From assembly GCA_036277115.1 (NCBI GenBank), contig DASUNM010000021.1, positions 62,001 through 126,000 on the forward strand: 64,000 bases of DNA, read 5' to 3'. The stretch comes from Pyrinomonadaceae bacterium. GTDB lineage: Bacteria; Acidobacteriota; Blastocatellia; Pyrinomonadales; Pyrinomonadaceae. Below, one piece after another: positions 16,446 to 59,166 of the stretch. Below the pieces are notes generated by a model. It saw nothing but the letters and a program-made list of their open reading frames with translations, was not told the DNA's origin and did not search any database. The position numbers and the translations under genes are program-made. Position 1 is the stretch's first letter, and each line of letters starts with the position of its first letter.

Positions 16446-16540
16446 CAACCCGAAGGGTTGCAAGAAAGTAGCCGGTGGTCGGAGTCCGCGGAGACCACCG
16501 GAAAGGCGATATTAATTTGGTCGCACCCCGGAGGGGTGCC
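16446..16540. repeat. Left inverted flank of the transposase element
   Basis: It contains CAACCC-GAA-GGGTTG, a CCGGTGGTC/GACCACCGG stem with a 12 bp loop, and GCACCCC-GGAG-GGGTGC. It lies 54 bp upstream of the transposase start and is an inverted copy of 17044-17138. Confidence 0.88.
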
Positions 16541-16594
16541 AGATCCTTCGCTGTAAAGATCTTTCACATTGACCTGTAATCTAGACTTCAGATT

Positions 16595-17038
16595 ATGGGT
16601 TCAACCTTCTTCAGCCTGCACTATCACATCGTCTTCTCGACCAAGGAGCGGCGACCCTTCATTAAGCCCGAATGGCAACCACGTCTTCATGCATACCTCG
16701 GCGGGATCATTAAAGGCATGAACGGCGTGCCCGAGATTGTCGGCGGAGTTGAGGATCACCTCCATATCCTTGCGAGTCTCAGGCCAGTGCATTGCATTGC
16801 GGATGTACTTCGCGACTTGAAGAAGGAATCGTCCACGTGGGCTAAAGAGAATTTTGATCGCAGATTCACCTGGCAAGAGGGTTATGCGGCGTTCACCGTA
16901 AGCCCCACGGCGACCGAATCCGTGAGGCGCTACATTGCCACGCAGGAGGCGCATCATCGTAAACATTCGTTTGTTGATGAATTGAGAGAGCTTCTTAACG
17001 CGGCCGGTATCGAATTTGATGAGAAGTACTTGTTGTGA
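16595..17038 (+). CDS. REP-associated tyrosine transposase / IS200-like Y1 transposase
   Basis: A 147-residue single-domain HUH endonuclease. The metal-binding HUH motif is HLHI (near residue 60, after GGVEDHLHILASL), and the catalytic Tyr is in the helix RRYIATQEAHH near residue 110. It starts FFSLHYHIVFSTKERRPFI, a typical Y1 N-terminus, and its length matches IS200 TnpA and RAYTs. No tnpB accompanies it. It is expected to cut single-stranded DNA at structured ends. The reading frame is intact and both key motifs are present, so it may be active. Flanking hairpins on both sides suggest that these are its substrate. Confidence 0.93.
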   Translation: MGSTFFSLHYHIVFSTKERRPFIKPEWQPRLHAYLGGIIKGMNGVPEIVGGVEDHLHILASLRPVHCIADVLRDLKKESSTWAKENFDRRFTWQEGYAAFTVSPTATESVRRYIATQEAHHRKHSFVDELRELLNAAGIEFDEKYLL

Positions 17039-17043
17039 CGTCT

Positions 17044-17138
17044 GGCACCCCTTCGGGGTGCGGTCATGATTAACGACTTTTCCGGTGGTCTCCGAGGACT
17101 CCGACCACCGGCTACTTTCTGGCAACCCTTCGGGTTGC
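17044..17138. repeat. Right inverted flank of the transposase element
   Basis: GCACCCC-TTC-GGGGTGC, then CCGGTGGTC/GACCACCGG, then CTACTTTCTG and GCAACCC-TTC-GGGTTGC. It begins 5 bp after the transposase stop. The minus-strand araC-type gene ends inside it. Confidence 0.88.
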
Positions 17139-17975: not shown

Positions 17976-18519
17976 TAACCTCTGACGTGTTCACGGTGGA
18001 AACGTCCGTCCCCCAACGCCCGTTCCAAAATCATCTGGAAAGTGAAAATCACGGGCGACGCGAGGTGGATTGGGTTGCCGTGTGCCGCAACACTCATGAC
18101 TCATTACCATTACTTTTTGCTCTACAAACTAATCAGAACGAAACGGGGCCATTAGGTTGATAGAGAGGCAGTAGCCGATGAGTCTTTCCTGCCTCTGGTT
18201 CTGTTTAGTGCGGCGGCCTCGACGGCGTTTTGGATTATGTGGGCCTACCGAGACTGAACTTAGAATTTTCGCCTCGGAACGCTCACTTTCAGACTCAGAA
18301 CTTCAACATGCTGACGAGGAATGACCGCGTTGCCGCTCGGAACTTGGCAGTTCCGAGACGGAACATCGAAATCAACTTGAACATGCGCCTTCCTGAGCGA
18401 AACGCGCACGCTCCTTAAGAGGACTCGAACGTTCCAAGAATCAAGGTTGATTTTTCTTTAGTATTACGAGAAGGCAGAAGGCACATTTTGGGCGCTATAA
18501 TCAAAGATTGGTGAATTCT
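17976..18519. other. Gene-free stretch at the edge of the AT-richer island
   Basis: No convincing gene. Between about 18265 and 18415 the word GGAAC or a close variant recurs roughly every 20 bp, including a CGGAACT-TGGC-AGTTCCG hairpin at 18339-18356. A 62-codon open frame here is Asn/Arg-rich only because of that recurrence. It may contain the promoter of the small gene that follows. Confidence 0.5.
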
Positions 18520-18990
18520 ATGGCAAACGAAGACGGAAGAGACACATGGAGCAATCTAACAATCGATCAAATTCTAGCCCATCTGAACATGTTAAAGATG
18601 AGAGTGCCTTATCTCACGGGGAAACTGACTATTGCGCTCGCTCGGGGTTCGTCGCGTGGAGCCGATATTACAGTTTCTCTTTCTGATGAACAGGGCATCC
18701 AACATGTTCTTATGTTTGAAGTGGAACAGTACGCTTCCGGGCGCGGCCACGGTGAGAAGATCGTACGTTGGGCGGAGAGACATAACACCACTGAGAATTC
18801 GATGACGGTCGTAATTAGCTTAGTGATGCAAGCTTTCTTTAATCGTATCACTGGGAGTTATTGCGAGGACGAGTCTATTCGCCAAATGGTTTACTCAAAG
18901 AACTTTCGAATTTATGCAGGCAGTGGAGATGGACGACTCACTGATGAACTAAAGACTTTCATTACGTTATGGATAGAAGAACGGTTGTAG
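18520..18990 (+). CDS. Small protein of unknown function, possible nuclease-like core
   Basis: A 156-residue soluble protein that I do not recognise. It begins MANEDGRDTWSNLTIDQIL. The stretch GADITVSLSDEQ...HVLMFEVEQ followed by GEKIVRW places Asp49, Glu67, Glu69 and Lys80 in an arrangement reminiscent of a PD-(D/E)xK core, a beta strand ending in Asp then a strand with ExE, but this is a weak pattern match only. The ATG at 18520 is preferred over TTG or GTG codons just before it. It converges with the three-gene methyltransferase operon, 28 bp from its last gene, and may belong to the same island. Confidence 0.7.
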   Translation: MANEDGRDTWSNLTIDQILAHLNMLKMRVPYLTGKLTIALARGSSRGADITVSLSDEQGIQHVLMFEVEQYASGRGHGEKIVRWAERHNTTENSMTVVISLVMQAFFNRITGSYCEDESIRQMVYSKNFRIYAGSGDGRLTDELKTFITLWIEERL

Positions 18991-19018
18991 CTCGCTTTTC
19001 AAAGCGACCCGCGCTCAC

Positions 19019-19951
19019 TTAAGGCAACTTACCAGAGGTCGATACTTTTAGGTGTTTATTCAAGACGAAGTCACACCACTTTTGATAACGTGGGTCTGAT
19101 TGGATTGTCTTGTTCTCTTGGAATGACCAGTATGCGATTCGACAGCGATCAAAGAGTACGCCCGTTCTTCGCGCGCGTTGGTCCCAGAGGTCCTTGCGAA
19201 TCCTGTGAGGGATGTAAAAGGTCCGAATATGCGGACTCACTCTCGGTATGCTCATCCATTGCGCCCAAAAAGGCTCCGGATCCAAGTCTGAATCTTTGTC
19301 CAACCAGTCCGCGCCTGCAGCACATTGGCCGAAGATAACCAGCTTGCTTGGCCATCCGTCATTAAAATCTTTCCAGGCGACGAGGTCGACCTTGTCGTCT
19401 TTTACGCCGCGTATAGGTTGGTCCCTAAACCCTCCGCCTTCACCAAGAGCTTTTCCCAACTCGTCGACACTGATCCGAAAAGCCTTTAGTGCTTTGTTAC
19501 TCTGTCCACGGGACGTTCCAAAGCTTATGACGGTGCCAGCCAAATAGTTCTTGGCTGCGATTGAACAAAGTTCCTCAAATAACAACCATGGATTGATACC
19601 TACTTCTTTATGACGTTGAGACTTCCAGCGAAAGTAAGACAGAAACAAACAGAAAAGGTAACCCACGAACTGATTCCTGTCTTGTTTTACCTTAACCGTT
19701 CCTCCTTCAATGGTAAAAGGATAAGAGCTGTCCGCGGATTTTGATCGTTCTTCCAACTCGCTGAACACTTGAAGGCACTTCTCCTCGATGGCCGCATCGC
19801 CCTTAGCTTCCAAGACGGAAGCGGTTTTGAGTGCGCTTTCGAGGTCGCCCCTACTTGAATTCTCATCAGGCGAGAGTAAGGCGAGTATCTCGACCCAATC
19901 GGCGAGCATCAATTCGTTTGTGGGTGCTGAAGGGAGGGTTAAACGAGGCAT
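19019..19951 (-). CDS. Uncharacterised protein, restriction-endonuclease-like pattern
   Basis: A 310-residue soluble protein, third in the methyltransferase/ParB operon and only 2 bp after the ParB-like stop, so probably co-translated. I do not recognise the family with certainty. Residues 125-138 (LFEELCSIAAKNYL) look like the helix that opens many restriction-nuclease folds. Then VKDDKVDLVAWKDF (Asp189) and LVIFGQCAAGADW (Gln209) match the spacing of the Asp and (E/Q)xK strands of Mrr-like PD-(D/E)xK enzymes, but the usual Lys after QC is Ala. It is either a nuclease with a shifted lysine or an inactive relative. The context supports a DNA-directed role. Confidence 0.8.
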   Translation of the reverse strand: MPRLTLPSAPTNELMLADWVEILALLSPDENSSRGDLESALKTASVLEAKGDAAIEEKCLQVFSELEERSKSADSSYPFTIEGGTVKVKQDRNQFVGYLFCLFLSYFRWKSQRHKEVGINPWLLFEELCSIAAKNYLAGTVISFGTSRGQSNKALKAFRISVDELGKALGEGGGFRDQPIRGVKDDKVDLVAWKDFNDGWPSKLVIFGQCAAGADWLDKDSDLDPEPFWAQWMSIPRVSPHIRTFYIPHRIRKDLWDQRARRTGVLFDRCRIAYWSFQENKTIQSDPRYQKWCDFVLNKHLKVSTSGKLP

Positions 19952-19953
19952 AA

Positions 19954-21087
19954 TTATTTCTTCGTGCGTTTCGCAATCACAGACTGCATTGACTCAATCA
20001 TCCGTTCAATCAGAAAAAGCATTTCTTTCCCCAGTTCAAAAAGATCAGATTCTCCCGAGTACCCGAGAGCCATTGAACCGTTTGCCTCAGTAAGGTCTTC
20101 TTTGGCTTTTGTCATTGCTTCCCGAAATCTTAGTTTGTCTCCGCGAGAGATCTCGACCGCCCGTTCAAGCGGATAGCCTGCTCGAAGGGCCGCTAAGGCG
20201 GATTTATTGCCAAGAACAACTCTAAGATTGGTTAGATCAGGATGCTGCGTTGAGACAACCGGCTTTTTGTTCTCTTCTTTGCTTCCATATATCCACACCA
20301 TTAGTTCTCTAAGCTCTTTTAGCTTCTTTCTCGGAACCGGATTTGCCTTTAGTGAATTTTCGGAAGTAATACCAAGGAAGTCTTGATACCCTTTTTGATC
20401 GGCTGCGGTGTACAAGTGGGAAAAATAAAACTTGTTCCTGATTCTATCTTCGCGGTTAAAGCCAGCTTGAGATTCCGCCTGACGAAGTATCTGATATCCA
20501 CGGTAGAGTTTTTTGACCGTCGAGTGCTGATCACCGATCCGCTCTGCGATCGTGTCTAGTGAGACGCGATAATTCGTCTTTACATAAGCAATGTACTTTG
20601 CCTTGCTAAATGAATCCCACGCTTTAGGGCCATTAATATGTCGGAATCCGAAGTACTCCCATAAATCCTTGCGACTCTCGTAAATTGCGACAGGTAACTC
20701 ATCAAGTGCTTTCTTCTCACGTGCAGTTAATCTTGGGAGGTCGGTAGCTTTCACTCGTTGCCGAAGTCCGTCCTCTCTTAATAGACGGACAGCCGCGAAA
20801 CGTCTGTTGCCTTCGACGACGATGTACTTCTTTTTCTTTGGGTCCTTCTCTCTCGGATTCTCGGGAATCGCAAACAGATTCTCTTCTGGGAAGAATCCGT
20901 TGGCAGCGATCGACAGAGCAACCTCATCTACTGCCATCTCTGTCCAGAGCAGCTTCACAATATCGTCCTGCGTTGTAAAGTCGCGACCCGAGGCAAGCCG
21001 AGGATTGTCGTAATCGAGTAGGAGTTGATCGACCTTAATATGAACGACCCGATGATAGTTGTTTGGTTCTGATGATTCAGGGGCCAT
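19954..21087 (-). CDS. ParB-like nuclease-fold protein
   Basis: A 377-residue protein with an N-terminal ParB/Srx-type domain. HIKVDQLLLDYDNPRLASG opens it and VEGNRRFAAVRLL (residues 91-103) is the ParB box with the EGNRR phosphate-binding motif. A central HTH-like region follows (VSLDTIAERIGDQHSTVKKLYRGYQIL), then a charged helical C-terminus. True chromosomal ParB would sit next to ParA; here it lies between an adenine methyltransferase (35 bp upstream) and a nuclease-like gene (2 bp downstream), so a role in DNA recognition or CTP/ATP-dependent switching in a modification system is more likely. Its base composition is lower in GC than the flanking genes. Confidence 0.85.
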   Translation of the reverse strand: MAPESSEPNNYHRVVHIKVDQLLLDYDNPRLASGRDFTTQDDIVKLLWTEMAVDEVALSIAANGFFPEENLFAIPENPREKDPKKKKYIVVEGNRRFAAVRLLREDGLRQRVKATDLPRLTAREKKALDELPVAIYESRKDLWEYFGFRHINGPKAWDSFSKAKYIAYVKTNYRVSLDTIAERIGDQHSTVKKLYRGYQILRQAESQAGFNREDRIRNKFYFSHLYTAADQKGYQDFLGITSENSLKANPVPRKKLKELRELMVWIYGSKEENKKPVVSTQHPDLTNLRVVLGNKSALAALRAGYPLERAVEISRGDKLRFREAMTKAKEDLTEANGSMALGYSGESDLFELGKEMLFLIERMIESMQSVIAKRTKK

Positions 21088-21122
21088 CGGATTTCCTCTC
21101 TTCCAGATTCATTTTGAACTGC

Positions 21123-22010
21123 TTAATTAGCCGACGCCGGAAGCCGTTTGAGATTGGTTATAAATAGTTCCTTTGTCTTTTGTCGAGTGCCCGCGGATGC
21201 GATCGAATACAAGTGTTCGACGTGATTCGTGCCGTTGGCACCCGAGGAGTACATTTTTACAATTTCTGGTGCGTTATCGTAACTCAATAGCCAAGGTCGC
21301 TTAAATGTATTTAAGAAGCGGCACAGTTCAAGATGATCTTGATCTTCAAAGTAGTACCGATACAACCTGTCAGCTTTAGCATAAAATGGCGGGTCAAAAT
21401 AAAAGAAGGTTTCCTGAGGTTTGTAGTCTAGCGCTTTAACTTTTTTGATAGTACTTTTCCATCCGCCTCGATTAACAAATTTTACCCGATCCTTAAGTTC
21501 ACTCGCTTGGCGGATTCGCTTTATCACATCCTCTTTGTTAAACCTGCAATCGATCTTGTAGTCCGAGGCCTGGTTCGGCCCTCCAATTGGCCCAGCAGAG
21601 TCTGCAAGTATTCCGGAAAAGCTAGTTCGGTTTAGAAAGATGCACGCCAATGCAGATTCTCGATTCGTTCTGCAGACACGGTCGCGATATGCCTTCCAGT
21701 TCTCTACTGTGATTTCCAACCGCTCGACTTGCTCTACAAGCCACTCAGTGTCCTTGAAGACCGTTTTCCAAAAGCCAGCTACAAGCGGGTCTTTTTCGCC
21801 AATCGCTATATTTTCAACTAAGTTCTGGCTTAAGAGTCTTAAGCTGACGCTCAACCCGCCCGCAAGAGGTTCACAGAAAAGTTTAGGCTTGAGCGAGTTC
21901 AACTTAAGTGTCTCGGCGATTGGTGTAAGCAGCCGGAGCTTGGCTCCCGGATATCGCAGAGGCGACCTAATCAGACCGCTGGTATCCTTAGTATCTTTCT
22001 CAGTTGTCAC
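21123..22010 (-). CDS. D12-class N6-adenine DNA methyltransferase (Dam-like)
   Basis: A 295-residue enzyme expected to transfer a methyl group from SAM to adenine N6 in DNA. SPLRYPGAKLRLL near residues 16-28 is the family's opening (the YPG(G/A)K motif). FCEPLAGGLSVSLRLL is the SAM-binding motif I, NRTSFSGIL is the D12 conserved block, and FFYFDPPFYAKADR (DPPF, residues 206-209) is catalytic motif IV. All motifs look intact. It is the first gene of a three-gene operon with a ParB-like and a nuclease-like protein. The start is a GTG without a strong ribosome site. The local base composition is clearly AT-rich (about 40 % GC over the 60 bases at 21361). Confidence 0.92.
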   Translation of the reverse strand: MTTEKDTKDTSGLIRSPLRYPGAKLRLLTPIAETLKLNSLKPKLFCEPLAGGLSVSLRLLSQNLVENIAIGEKDPLVAGFWKTVFKDTEWLVEQVERLEITVENWKAYRDRVCRTNRESALACIFLNRTSFSGILADSAGPIGGPNQASDYKIDCRFNKEDVIKRIRQASELKDRVKFVNRGGWKSTIKKVKALDYKPQETFFYFDPPFYAKADRLYRYYFEDQDHLELCRFLNTFKRPWLLSYDNAPEIVKMYSSGANGTNHVEHLYSIASAGTRQKTKELFITNLKRLPASAN

Positions 22011-22196
22011 TTTTCAGGCAATGTGCAGACGTGCTCGTTGAGAGTGCATGAGTCTAACACAGGCAACAACGGGTCTCACGTGATAAGTATGAGTGTAATG
22101 AGAGATCCGAAACTTGGTTCAGACCTGCGGTTGTAATTTGGGTTGTACGGCTGATCTTGCAGCCATCAAAACCACCACAGCTCCCTTCGGCGGTAG

Positions 22197-22241
22197 AATC
22201 CTTGTGGACTTCGTGGCCACGAAAGGTCGCGCGCAATTCCA
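22197..22241 (-). pseudogene. Remnant of a paralogue of the protein at 24997
   Basis: Read on the minus strand, this stretch encodes LELRATFRGHEVHKDS, which matches ELEIRATFRGHEVHKDF at the C-terminus of the protein encoded at 24997-25431. The DNA agrees in about 36 of 44 positions. An in-frame stop lies just upstream and nothing of the rest of the gene is present. Like its full-length relative, it sits beside a TCAGAGG-type heptamer array. I read it as a leftover of a duplication. Confidence 0.6.
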
Positions 22242-22332
22242 GAAAACCAGAGGTCAGAGATCAGAGGTCAGCAAGCAGAAGGCAACGGCAGACGGCAGGA
22301 GGCAGAACGCAGAACTCAGAAGTCAGAATCTT
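22242..22332. repeat. Degenerate heptamer array (TCAGAGG type)
   Basis: Repeats of CAGAGGT, CAGAGAT and GCAGAAG-type units, increasingly degenerate towards 22330, ending beside the stop codon of the SGNH hydrolase gene. Related to the cleaner array at 24925-25000. Confidence 0.7.
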
Positions 22333-23044
22333 ACTCCAGCGACGCGGCCACCACCGGCCACATCTTTTCGGCCCAGAGATCGTAACCAGCGTCAGAGGGA
22401 TGGAAGCCATCCCGCGAAAAGTATTCAGGGTGTTGTTGTAACTCTTCGTGCGTAAATTGATAGATGTCAAAGAGTTGAACGGCCCGCTTATTCGCGACCT
22501 CGCGTAGCCGCGCGTTGAATTGCTCAATCATCGCTTGCATCTGGATGCGAACTACCGCCGGAACGTGTCTTGAGCTGGAGAGGTCAGGAATATTAGAGAT
22601 CACCACCGTCGCGTCGGTTTCACTCGTTAGTCGGACCAGTATTTCATCGTAATTCGCCGCAAATCGTTCTGCCGAAACGCCACGTCTGATGTCGTTAACC
22701 CCGACGCTGATTGTTATGAGCTGAGGTTTTGCCGCAACTGTCTTTTCAATTTGGCGCGAGACATCGGCCGTGGTGCCGCCGCTCAGTGAGTAGTTATGGA
22801 GCTTTGATCCCGGGCGCACCTGCTCTAGCTTCCGGGACAGGACAGGCACATAGCCGCCCCGAGTTCCTCCGACACCGATCCCGGTTGAATCTCCAAGTGC
22901 AACGTAAGTGATCGGTCCGGCAATCATAGGTTTTCTTTGTTGGCTCTCTACCGTTCGTTCTGCGTCTTTAGTGACGGCAGGGTTTCGCGAAAGACAACCG
23001 GCGGCCGTCATTGAAAGCATAATCAACAGCAATGCTGATCTCAT
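22331..23044 (-). CDS. SGNH/GDSL hydrolase lipoprotein
   Basis: About 237 residues. The lipoprotein signal MRSALLLIMLSMTAAGC has lipobox TAAGC. The SGNH blocks are in order: VALGDSTGIGVG (block I, nucleophile Ser in GDS), a Gly block in LSGGTTAD, ISVGVNDIRRG (block III, GxND) and RDGFHPSDAGY (block V, catalytic DxxH). It is likely a periplasmic esterase or deacetylase acting on small esters or acylated polysaccharide. The ATG at 23044 gives the intact signal peptide. The gene ends against a heptamer array. Confidence 0.92.
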   Translation of the reverse strand: MRSALLLIMLSMTAAGCLSRNPAVTKDAERTVESQQRKPMIAGPITYVALGDSTGIGVGGTRGGYVPVLSRKLEQVRPGSKLHNYSLSGGTTADVSRQIEKTVAAKPQLITISVGVNDIRRGVSAERFAANYDEILVRLTSETDATVVISNIPDLSSSRHVPAVVRIQMQAMIEQFNARLREVANKRAVQLFDIYQFTHEELQQHPEYFSRDGFHPSDAGYDLWAEKMWPVVAASLE

Positions 23045-23078
23045 CGAAGGAACCAAACTTATCCACAGATTACTCTAG

Positions 23079-23148
23079 AACAGTGGGCAGTGAGCAGTGG
23101 GCAGTGGGCAGTGGGCGGTGAGCAGTGAGCAGTGGGCGGTGAGCAGAA
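23079..23148. repeat. Heptamer array (GTGGGCA/GTGAGCA)
   Basis: About ten 7 bp units, ending GAGCAGAA directly against the terminal palindrome of family B copy 5. Confidence 0.88.
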
Positions 23149-23412
23149 GTGCGCGGAGCGCACGGCAGCATAAAGCCCGGGCGTAAGCCCCGGGAAAGTG
23201 TCGAGTTTGAATCAAGAGCCCGCGAAGCGGGCGGCAGATGTTGCGTCGAACGGCCTGTCGCCCGCTCCGCGGGCTTGGCTTTAGTTTGTAAATCGCGATC
23301 CTGGGGTTTGCTCGTCCCGATACATCGGGACTCGCTGCACCCCAGGCCGGGGTCCCCAGCCGAGCATCTCGGCTGGGGTGGAAGTCTTTATGCTGACGTG
23401 CGCTCCGCGCAC
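23149..23412. repeat. Family B element, full length (copy 5)
   Basis: The longest copy. The left end is GTGCGCGGAGCGCAC with GGCAGCATAAAGCC; the right end is TCTTTATGCTGAC with GTGCGCTCCGCGCAC. The inner arms are GAGCCCGCGAAGCGGGC and CCCGCTCCGCGGGC. It is nearly identical to copy 6 (26048) over their shared part, except that copy 5 carries TCCCGATACATCGGGA, itself a palindrome, where copy 6 has GCTGCGC. Confidence 0.9.
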
Positions 23413-23422
23413 TGCAGGGAGC

Positions 23423-24847: not shown

Positions 24848-24924
24848 GAGTCTTACTCCCGGGTGATGCAGATGACACAGAAAACCACAATGGATGCTGA
24901 GGATGCAAGAAACCGGAAACCAGA

Positions 24925-25000
24925 TGTCAGAGGTCAGAAGTCAGAAGTCAGATGTCAGAAGTCAGAAGTCAGAGATCAGAGATCAGAGATCAGAACTCAC
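24925..25000. repeat. Heptamer array (GTCAGAA/ATCAGAG)
   Basis: About ten clean 7 bp units: GTCAGAG, GTCAGAA, GTCAGAT, then ATCAGAG. The minus-strand gene that follows has its stop codon at the array edge. Confidence 0.9.
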
Positions 25001-25431
25001 TCACTAGCTAACTTAGGTGCGGGAAAATCTTTATGCACTTCGTGACCGCGAAAGGTCGCGCGTATTTCTAACTCACTAATCTGATTTGAACCGACGGAAT
25101 TCGGATTGAACGCAGCGCCTTGTTCGTTGGTGAGACTAAGAAGAGAGTGTGTGACGGTCTCGCCGGGACGGATCGTGCCGATCTGCATGCTGTAGAGCGT
25201 TCCTCCCACGTAAATCCTTAAACTTGTGTTCAAGTATGGCTCTTGTTCCGTATTGCGGATGGACACGTTCCCGGAGTCGTAAGTTACTGCCGGCCGGAAG
25301 GGAAGCGTCGCGTAAGGATCGCTGGCGACGTTCGGAGACTGTCGCAGCCAGAGAACTGCACTCACGATGAACCCGGCAACGGCAATCGACACTAAGACGG
25401 CAAGGATCAGGATGCGTAACTTTAGGCTCAA
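24997..25431 (-). CDS. Membrane-anchored protein of unknown function
   Basis: A 144-residue protein with one N-terminal membrane helix (residues 5-28) and an exported beta-rich domain containing SIRNTEQEPYLNTSLRIYVG and IGTIRPGETVTHSL. I do not recognise the family; the layout resembles small periplasmic Ig-like domains. The last residues, LASE, and the TGA stop border a heptamer array, so the natural C-terminus may have been trimmed. A 16-residue piece of a paralogue survives at 22197-22241, on the other side of the beta-lactamase-like gene. Confidence 0.75.
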   Translation of the reverse strand: MSLKLRILILAVLVSIAVAGFIVSAVLWLRQSPNVASDPYATLPFRPAVTYDSGNVSIRNTEQEPYLNTSLRIYVGGTLYSMQIGTIRPGETVTHSLLSLTNEQGAAFNPNSVGSNQISELEIRATFRGHEVHKDFPAPKLASE

Positions 25432-25456
25432 GACAATCGACAGATTACTCTAAAAA

Positions 25457-25556
25457 CAGTTGGCGGTGGGCAGTGAGCTGTGGGCAGTGGGCGGTGTGCA
25501 GTGGGCAGTGGGCGGTGAGCAGAAGTCAGTACCACCTGCGGTAGCGGGTGGGTTCA
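25457..25556. repeat. Heptamer array followed by a family G unit
   Basis: Units of GTGGGCA, GTGAGCA and GTGGGCG up to about 25522, then AAGTCAGTACCACCTGCGG and TAGCGGGTGGGTTCA (family G). The same array-plus-G order occurs at 28000-28080 and 38752-38808. Confidence 0.82.
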
Positions 25557-25625
25557 CGCCGAGGCGCCAAGACGCAAAGGAACTCAAACGGATCCAAAGC
25601 GCCGTCGAGGCCGGCGCAGTCCAAA

Positions 25626-25806
25626 GTGCGCGGAGCGCACGCGGCTGTGCCGCAGCACATAGCGGAAAGGCTCGGCCTTTCCGGCTCGCTCTTCAAGTAG
25701 CTCGAGGCTGCGCCTCGAGCTTCGGCGGCGTAGCCGCAAATCAAAAACCAATCACCACAGGGTAAGCCAGAGGCTTACCGCCATGTGCGGCGGCAAAGCC
25801 GCGTAA
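25626..25806. repeat. Family D element (copy 3) with a family B terminus
   Basis: GTGCGCGGAGCGCAC leads into GCGGCTGTGCCGCAGCACA, a GGAAAGGCTCGGCCTTTCC hairpin, GCTCGAGGCTGCGCCTCGAG, GCGGCGTAGCCGC, a GGTAAGCCAGAGGCTTACC hairpin and finally TGTGCGGCGGCAAAGCCGC. It is a longer version of copy 2. Confidence 0.75.
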
Positions 25807-25850
25807 GGCAGACGACAGGAGGCGAAAGGCAGAAATCAGAAAGCAGAAAT

Positions 25851-26030
25851 CAGGCGCGAAGCGCCGCGATGAAATAGCCCCGACCGTCAGGTCGGGGTAA
25901 CAGTCACCAACAAGTGCATGAGGCCCGAAGGGCCGAGATGATTCATGCCGGTCCTCCGGACCTCGCCAATCATCCATAACCGTCACCACGACCTGACGGT
26001 CGTGGCTATCTCCTAACGGCCCTTCGGGCC
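25851..26030. repeat. Family A element (copy 3)
   Basis: Full length, with AGGCGCGAAGCGCC, CCCCGACCGTCAGGTCGGGG, AGGCCCGAAGGGCC, CACGACCTGACGGTCGTGG-CTATCTCC and GGCCCTTCGGGCC. It lies between a family D and a family B element with almost no spacer. Confidence 0.88.
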
Positions 26031-26047
26031 TGCCGTTTTGGATCAAA

Positions 26048-26229
26048 GAGCCCGCGAAGCGGGCGGCAGATGTTGCGTCGAACGTCGCCCGCTCCGCGGG
26101 CTTGGCTTTAGTTTGTAAATCGCGATCCTGGGGTTTGCTCGCTGCGCTCGCTGCACCCCAGGCCGGGGTCCCCAGCCGAGCATCTCGGCTGGGGTGGAAG
26201 TCTTTATGCTGACGTGCGCTCCGCGCACT
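26048..26229. repeat. Family B element lacking its left end (copy 6)
   Basis: It starts at the inner arm GAGCCCGCGAAGCGGGC and continues to the right terminus GTGCGCTCCGCGCAC. The left terminus is absent, with family A copy 3 in its place. CTCACTGCTCACTG heptamers follow to 26258. Confidence 0.88.
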
Positions 26230-59125: not shown

Positions 59126-59166
59126 GCCGATCTCAGATTTCAGATCTCAGATTTCAAATCTGAGAT
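59126..59166. repeat. Heptamer array (TCAGATT) at the end of a DGPF gene
   Basis: Units TCAGATT, TCAGATC and their inverse AATCTGA. Part of the array forms a hairpin. The minus-strand DGPF gene ends in it (ISDLKSEI then TGA). Confidence 0.85.

What the first reader, a model, noticed from the sequence alone, without database searches (positions are those of the whole stretch)
18520..22010. AT-rich island with adenine methyltransferase, ParB-like protein and nuclease-like protein: candidate modification or defence system
Seen: a D12 methyltransferase with DPPF, a ParB-like protein with EGNRR and a 310-residue unknown protein form one operon with gaps of 35 and 2 bp. Base composition is visibly lower in GC than the neighbours. 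Known: D12 methyltransferases and ParB-like nuclease folds occur together in phage and modification systems, and ParB boxes can act as CTP/ATP switches. Inference: the third protein has LFEELC..AAKNYL, then DLVAW and IFGQCAAGADW with the spacing of an Mrr-like nuclease core. I cannot place this exact trio in any described defence system.
Basis: partly seen in the sequence, partly recalled or inferred. Interest (0 to 1): 0.75.

Follow-up and report, generated by a model that had tools for sequence, protein, structure and literature searches.

The report
ParB-nuclease pair with swappable DNA methylase
Three neighbouring genes encode a DNA-marking enzyme, a ParB-type molecular switch and a predicted DNA-cutting enzyme; the last two travel together across about 20 bacterial phyla and many prophages while the marking enzyme is repeatedly swapped, which points to a widespread and poorly recognised restriction-type anti-phage defence.

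Summary
Window 19019-22010 (minus strand) is a compact three-gene operon in the lowest-GC stretch of the window: a D12 adenine methylase, a ParB-like protein and a 310-aa protein. The nuclease guess also holds. The 310-aa family has an N-terminal winged-helix-like part and a PD-(D/E)XK domain. Its profile matches the catalytic D...QxK motif of MspJI (E 5e-4), and its model matches restriction enzymes. In 164 complete relatives a lysine sits at QxK or eight residues on: 163 have it, and only one has both.

The pair is close to obligate. The 310-aa gene follows the ParB-like gene in 80/80 viral loci and at least 74/80 genomic loci. A DNA methylase abuts the pair in 77/80 viral loci and lies within 1.5 kb in 67/72 genomic loci. 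Its class is C5, D12 or N6/N4, and it has switched repeatedly on the ParB tree.

The methylase and the ParB N-terminus match the validated system PD-Lambda-5. Its A protein, however, has a different C-terminus and no nuclease partner. P2-type phage Wphi, resident in E. coli W, carries the same pair with a C5 methylase.

Best reading: a restriction-modification-like defence with a ParB-type switch. Which subunit reads DNA, and whether methylation protects or licenses, is untested.

The parts
21123..22010 (-). D12-class (N6-adenine type) DNA methylase, 295 aa, GTG start, DPPF catalytic motif; first gene of the operon
   Evidence: Pfam PF02086 E 2.1e-12; PADLOC PD-Lambda-5_B E 3.6e-75; NCBIfam dam E 2e-15, below its curated cut-off; DPPF shared with the sister methylase of L106, DPPY in 48 of 52 relatives
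19954..21087 (-). ParB-like protein, 377 aa: ParB/Srx NTP-binding domain (about 13-136, EGNRR box), HTH region (about 137-300), C-terminal helices; second gene
   Evidence: PADLOC PD-Lambda-5_A over the N-terminus only (residues 15-167, E 7e-19); phrog_3694 full length E 3e-77; model pLDDT 92 matching KorB Z 11.5, Noc Z 10.1, ParB Z 9.8
19019..19951 (-). Predicted nuclease, 310 aa: N-terminal winged-helix-like part (about 8-109) and PD-(D/E)XK domain (about 91-290) with D189, Q209 and the shifted lysine K219; third gene
   Evidence: Profile match to MspJI over its D...QxK motif, E 5e-4; model pLDDT 89, pTM 0.90; Foldseek MspJI probability 0.96; VIA-align BsmI, MspJI, Nt.BspD6I and FokI Z 6.4-7.5; lysine swap in 164 relatives
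22011..22330 (-). Intergenic region expected to hold the operon promoter; no clear promoter or inverted repeat found
   Evidence: Repeat scan and promoter scan gave nothing above expectation

Best explanation
A three-component, restriction-modification-like anti-phage system. The methylase marks the host genome (inferred). The ParB-like NTPase and the PD-(D/E)XK nuclease are an obligate pair forming the restriction arm (pairing shown; complex formation inferred). The most economical mechanism: the ParB-like protein binds a short DNA site through its HTH region, is switched by nucleotide on its EGNRR domain, and recruits or activates the nuclease on DNA that lacks the methyl mark. Methylation of that site by whichever methylase is present blocks the step, so methylases of different chemistry can replace one another. 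Likelihoods: MTase-coupled restriction-type DNA defence about 0.7; mark protects rather than licenses about 0.6 of that; ParB as the site reader about 0.4.
For: Nuclease assignment: profile hit to MspJI over D334...Q355-A-K357; model matches mostly to PD-(D/E)XK enzymes; invariant D189 and near-invariant Q209; lysine at 211 only in 47, at 219 only in 115, both in 1, neither in 1 of 164 complete proteins. ParB fold. Obligate pair: 80/80 IMG/VR loci and at least 74/80 GTDB contigs from about 20 phyla. Methylase beside it: 77/80 viral within 100 bp, 67/72 genomic within 1.5 kb. Methylase exchange: D12 12, N6N4 8 and C5 7 label changes on the ParB tree, fewest forced by starred branches 9, 7 and 4. 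ParB-nuclease distances correlate at 0.53-0.93, methylase-pair distances at 0.17-0.55 in the C5 and N6N4 sets and 0.76-0.79 in D12. Defence context: in Wphi and 12474III the trio lies between gene A and the portal side; portal gene within 1.5 kb in 36/80 viral loci, a P2 region examined as a defence hotspot in PMC9519451. PD-Lambda-5, which shares two of the three modules, was shown to block phages (PMC9519451).
Against: No trio of this exact kind has a phage phenotype that I could find. Structural Z scores (7.0-7.5) are in the range the tool warns may be common; Foldseek E for MspJI is 0.01. No recognition site, methylome or nucleotide-binding data exist. The Persicobacter pair (L003) has no methylase nearby, and L004 has a dcm gene 5.8 kb away, so the methylase may not always be needed. 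Attempts to tell which subunit covaries with the methylase were inconclusive.
Confidence: 0.68

Rival explanations
1. Self-mark-licensed restriction, as in SspE: methylated host DNA is sensed by the ParB-like domain, NTP hydrolysis switches the nuclease on, and the nuclease then cuts unmarked incoming DNA. The mark is an activator, not a shield.
For: SspE and GmrSD also couple a ParB-superfamily NTPase (DGQQR box) to a nuclease, and in SspE the host mark stimulates the GTPase (PMC13251355; PMC4619093). The C-terminal domain of the nuclease resembles that of modification-dependent MspJI.
Against: The same pair works with C5, N6 and N6/N4 methylases, hard to reconcile with one sensor pocket for one modified base. 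No modified-base reader domain was recognised; the N-terminal part is winged-helix-like, not SRA-like.
Confidence: 0.15
2. Abortive-infection guard: the pair is held inactive in healthy cells and the nuclease destroys cellular DNA when a phage disturbs the methylase or the modification state.
For: The authors of PD-Lambda-5 describe it as a compacted prophage version of an RM+Abi system (PMC9519451). Prophage location is common for Abi systems.
Against: Nothing in the sequence separates suicide from direct restriction; the nuclease family is of the restriction type.
Confidence: 0.13
3. The ParB-like protein is only the operon's transcription regulator (a KorB- or C-protein-like role) and the nuclease with its methylase is an ordinary two-protein type II restriction-modification system.
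For: Closest fold is KorB, a transcriptional repressor (Z 11.5). Controllers are common in type II systems.
Against: Controllers are usually dispensable and exchangeable, whereas here the ParB-nuclease link is the tightest and the methylase is the part that changes. PD-Lambda-5 keeps the ParB module with another C-terminal domain, as a working part would be kept.
Confidence: 0.12
4. Mobile-element maintenance or partition, not defence: the pair stabilises plasmids or prophages.
For: ParB-type fold; frequent on prophages and plasmids.
Against: Many copies lie in chromosomal contigs; the constant neighbour is a DNA methylase.
Confidence: 0.04

Closest known systems
PD-Lambda-5 (Vassallo et al. 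2022, PMC9519451)
   Same: Its B protein is the same D12 methylase family (E 3.6e-75); its A protein shares the ParB N-terminal domain (residues 15-167); both occur on prophages.
   Different: PD-Lambda-5 proteins in AS1, Pkon1 and L129 are 439-486 aa with their own C-terminal domain. In AS1 and Pkon1 the gene is followed directly by the methylase, with no separate nuclease. Profile comparison of the window nuclease family with the Pkon1 A protein gives no match.
Phage Wphi gp98-gp96-Mth (E. coli W) and P2-type relatives
   Same: Same ParB-nuclease pair beside a DNA methylase.
   Different: The methylase is C5 and convergent with the pair; in the window it is D12 and first in the operon. No function is annotated for gp96 or gp98.
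GmrSD / SspE (DUF262 + HNH)
   Same: A ParB-superfamily NTPase coupled to a DNA nuclease in defence (PMC4619093, PMC13251355).
   Different: Different nuclease fold (HNH), DUF262 DGQQR box instead of EGNRR, targets or needs modified DNA, no dedicated methylase.
MspJI family of restriction enzymes
   Same: Catalytic PD-(D/E)XK domain: D...QxK motif aligned at E 5e-4; Foldseek probability 0.96.
   Different: MspJI is a single protein with an SRA-like reader of 5-methylcytosine; here the N-terminal part is winged-helix-like, there is a ParB partner and a methylase, and in most members the lysine has moved.
PADLOC candidate PDC-M38
   Same: The 715-aa PDC-M38A profile matches the ParB-like family over 82-336 (window E 1e-15, best 2.5e-27).
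   Different: No match of the nuclease family to that profile; I found no paper describing it.

Membership tests
PD-Lambda-5 | Methylase of the PD-Lambda-5_B family | tested here: met
   E 3.6e-75 over residues 15-285
PD-Lambda-5 | A protein matching PD-Lambda-5_A over most of its length | tested here: not met
   Best profile covers 6-157 of 440; true A proteins of Pkon1 and L129 cover nearly all of their best profiles
PD-Lambda-5 | Two-gene architecture without a separate nuclease | tested here: not met
   A third gene of constant family follows the ParB-like gene in 80/80 viral loci; none in AS1 or Pkon1
PD-(D/E)XK nuclease superfamily | Catalytic D...(E/Q)xK in the core fold | tested here: met
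   MspJI motif alignment, model and fold matches, invariant D and near-invariant Q; canonical QxK in 48 of 166 relatives, lysine moved in the rest including the window
MspJI family (modification-dependent) | SRA-like reader of modified cytosine | tested here: inconclusive
   N-terminal part aligns to winged-helix domains, not to SRA; a missing match does not exclude
ParB/Srx superfamily | ParB N-domain fold with a G(E/N)RR-type nucleotide box | tested here: met
   EGNRR invariant in 53 proteins; ParB, Noc and KorB Z 8-11.5
ParB/Srx superfamily | Nucleotide binding or hydrolysis | not testable with these tools
   Needs protein
Type II restriction-modification | Endonuclease and methylase of the same specificity, methylation blocks cleavage | not testable with these tools
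   Both enzymes present; specificity unknown
GmrSD / SspE | DUF262 domain with HNH (DUF1524) nuclease | tested here: not met
   No Pfam match of the window pair to either; nuclease is PD-(D/E)XK

The most novel reading that the evidence does not exclude
A ParB-type NTP-switched DNA clamp is the site-reading and loading subunit of a restriction endonuclease: it loads at an unmethylated site, spreads or signals, and delivers a PD-(D/E)XK nuclease, so that methylases of different chemistry can be swapped as long as they cover the ParB site. This would be a widespread, mechanistically new class of restriction-modification.
Probability: 0.3. Interest if true: 0.85.

Novelty: new variant of a known kind. 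Interest (0 to 1): 0.66.

Why it matters
The ParB-nuclease pair is present in about 20 phyla and many P2-type prophages, yet its nuclease has no Pfam or NCBIfam model, and PADLOC has none that matches the window protein. Defence finders could easily label such loci PD-Lambda-5 or an orphan methylase and miss the nuclease. It also offers a direct test of whether ParB-type NTP switches, best known from chromosome segregation, act as restriction subunits, and a natural series of methylase swaps on one restriction module. A copy of the same family sits in the common laboratory strain E. coli W, so the test is easy.

Tried and rejected
Single-sequence searches with the nuclease failed in both IMG/VR and GTDB contigs; the ParB motif EGNRR opened the family instead. 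The 160-aa convergent ORF was considered as a fourth component and rejected. An origin of the nuclease from the PD-Lambda-5_A C-terminus was tested and rejected. An empty-site comparison was not possible: relatives share the flanking lipase only distantly, 46% at best, and no flanking window gene occurs in the trio loci. A site for ParB upstream of the operon was not found. Correlation of methylase divergence with parts of ParB or nuclease did not single out a specificity domain. Literature searches for ParB with methylase and defence found GmrSD, SspE, Dnd and BREX papers but none describing this trio; subscription papers and preprints are not covered. Four of the 80 genomic loci have no recognisable nuclease beside the ParB gene: L155, L158 and L185 (the first two have a NotI-type enzyme instead) and L114; L116 stops at the contig end.
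Full report
Observation. The window holds, on the minus strand, three abutting genes: a 295-aa D12 methylase (21123-22010), a 377-aa ParB-like protein (19954-21087) and a 310-aa protein (19019-19951), with gaps of 35 and 2 bp. Their GC is 46-49%, GC3 47-53%, against 55.7% for the window and GC3 56-64% in neighbours; the 3.5-kb stretch is essentially the lowest in the window. The remaining left part of the finding is a 160-aa ORF on the other strand without relatives.

Family assignments. Pfam finds only the methylase. PADLOC assigns the methylase to PD-Lambda-5_B (E 3.6e-75) and the first 167 residues of the ParB-like protein to PD-Lambda-5_A (E 7e-19), but nothing for the third. PHROGs matches the ParB-like protein over its full length (phrog_3694, E 3e-77) and the third protein (phrog_14650, E 1e-30), all of unknown function. 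So phages carry both.

The third protein is a nuclease by prediction. An alignment of 57 relatives has an invariant D189 and Q209. Its profile finds exactly one solved protein, MspJI, over the stretch SGDGGVDFIGR...VVVLGQAKC that holds the enzyme's D, Q and K (that these are the catalytic residues is from my own knowledge). A model from this alignment is confident (pLDDT 89, pTM 0.90). Foldseek ranks MspJI with probability 0.96 but E 0.01. In the second look most of the best matches to residues 91-290 are PD-(D/E)XK enzymes (BsmI 7.5, MspJI 7.0, Nt.BspD6I 6.8, PaqCI 6.7, FokI 6.4, AspBHI 6.0, also Card1 and EndoMS), while residues 8-109 match winged-helix domains (FOXN1, FOXN3, E2F-DP). These Z values alone would not be convincing. 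Together with the independent motif match they are.

A lysine that moves. In MspJI the motif is QxK. In 166 relatives, 47 have the lysine there only, 115 have it eight residues downstream only (W-x-x-K), one has both and three have neither, of which two are truncated sequences. The window protein is of the second type (Q209-C-A, K219). Such near-exclusive use of two positions is expected if one catalytic lysine is needed and either position can supply it. Sequences are related, so the count is not a count of events, but the rule holds across the family.

The ParB-like protein. The model (pLDDT 92) matches KorB (Z 11.5), Noc (10.1), ParB (9.8) and sulfiredoxin (8.1). The nucleotide box EGNRR is invariant in 53 relatives. 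Nucleotide use is inferred.

The unit in other genomes. Starting from the ParB-like family, 80 IMG/VR loci were fetched. All 80 carry the nuclease family directly downstream, and 77 have a DNA methylase within 100 bp or overlapping; two of the other three stop at a contig end. From 84,980 species genomes the best 80 ParB-like loci come from about 20 phyla, including isolates of Bradyrhizobium, Kribbella, Paludisphaera, Pseudomonas, Microcystis, Dyadobacter and Pedobacter; many others are metagenome bins, whose binning can err. Seventy-two have the nuclease in the expected place, L121 has it after a disrupted start and L129 was missed by a coordinate filter; L128 is cut by its contig end but matches. 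Of the 72, 67 have a methylase within 1.5 kb: 43 D12 and 24 N6/N4. These are the loci closest to the window family, not a random draw. In the window's own phylum 4 of 297 genomes have the nuclease, each with ParB and methylase beside it.

The methylase is the exchangeable part. The classes are C5, D12 and N6/N4. On a tree of 101 ParB-like proteins the fewest label changes are 12 for D12, 8 for N6/N4 and 7 for C5; branches with strong support alone force 9, 7 and 4. The window's nearest relative (L106, 62-63%) has a D12 methylase, but the next (L009, L111, L107) have N6/N4 enzymes. ParB and nuclease distances are tightly correlated (0.90-0.93 in the D12 set, 0.76-0.83 in C5, 0.53-0.67 in N6/N4), while methylase distances follow them less in the C5 and N6/N4 sets (0.17-0.55; D12 0.76-0.79).

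Where it sits. Wphi of E. coli W has gp98 (ParB-like), gp96 (nuclease) and mth (C5 methylase) beside orf92, orf91 and gene A; 12474III has the trio between portal gene Q and gene A. A P2 portal gene lies within 1.5 kb upstream in 36 of 80 viral loci. In P2 this end of the genome carries the exclusion genes old and tin (own knowledge), and Vassallo et al. examined the neighbourhood of the portal gene as the P2 defence hotspot (PMC9519451). Among 146 other genes near genomic copies, Septu, MADS, AriA and type I restriction models appear two or three times each; I had no control for that count, so it is weak.

Relation to PD-Lambda-5. That system is experimentally validated (PMC9519451). Bona fide A proteins (Pkon1, L129, and AS1 more distantly) match PD-Lambda-5_A well beyond the N-terminus and in AS1 and Pkon1 are followed directly by the methylase. 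Their C-terminal part is unrelated to the nuclease family at profile level, while the ParB part is related (98.8% probability). L129 carries the trio and a PD-Lambda-5_A gene in tandem. So the window trio shares two modules with PD-Lambda-5 and replaces the effector by a separate nuclease; it is not a member by architecture.

Mechanism. Shown: gene arrangement, folds by prediction, conservation, methylase exchange. Inferred: that the methylase marks self, that ParB and nuclease act together, and that cleavage falls on unmarked DNA. That the restriction pair tolerates methylases of three chemistries fits a mark that blocks access at a site better than a mark read in a base-specific pocket, and the HTH region of ParB is the obvious site reader; neither is proven. 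The SspE type of logic, in which the host mark licenses the nuclease, remains open (PMC13251355).

Verdict. The unit is a widespread restriction-type system that shares parts with PD-Lambda-5, GmrSD/SspE and MspJI but equals none of them. No description of this trio was found in the searchable literature, which lacks subscription papers and preprints.

Noticed in passing
window 16446-17137: A Y1 (IS200-like) transposase gene (16595-17038) is framed by a 59-nt inverted repeat, 97% complementary (16446-16504 and 17079-17137), 1.3 kb from the AT-rich island: looks like a REP-associated transposase unit.
   Followed up: partly
window 22248-22325, 24921-25001, 25795-25862, 59127-59158: Interspersed arrays of a degenerate 7-nt unit (CAGAAGT/CAGAGAT type), 20 matches against 0.4 expected; one array lies just upstream of the operon.
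   Followed up: partly
window 22190-23413 and 25019-26229: Several blocks are repeated at a constant spacing of about 2.82-2.83 kb (83 and 58 nt identical, others 82-87%), a remnant of a tandem duplication next to the island.
   Followed up: no
window 18508-18990 (+): 160-aa ORF at the same low GC, convergent with the nuclease gene, no relatives in 199 genomes of the phylum or any family library.
   Followed up: yes
L155 6334-7215, L158 6335-7186: ParB-like and D12 genes with a NotI-type restriction enzyme (Pfam NotI E 3.5e-42 in L155) and no family nuclease: the nuclease may also be exchangeable.
   Followed up: partly
L129 4968-8483: ParB-nuclease pair with D12 methylase directly followed by a full PD-Lambda-5_A gene, two related systems in tandem.
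   Followed up: partly
L001 4848-12903; L004 1-8882: The pair also stands beside Z1-domain and Dcm-type systems (L004 also DUF262 and a PD-(D/E)XK motif protein); L001 holds two copies of the pair and is labelled a phage scaffold.
   Followed up: partly
L091; E. coli genomes: The Wphi trio has a match in 139 of 5426 complete E. coli genomes (103 cover at least 80% of it), including E. coli W.
   Followed up: yes
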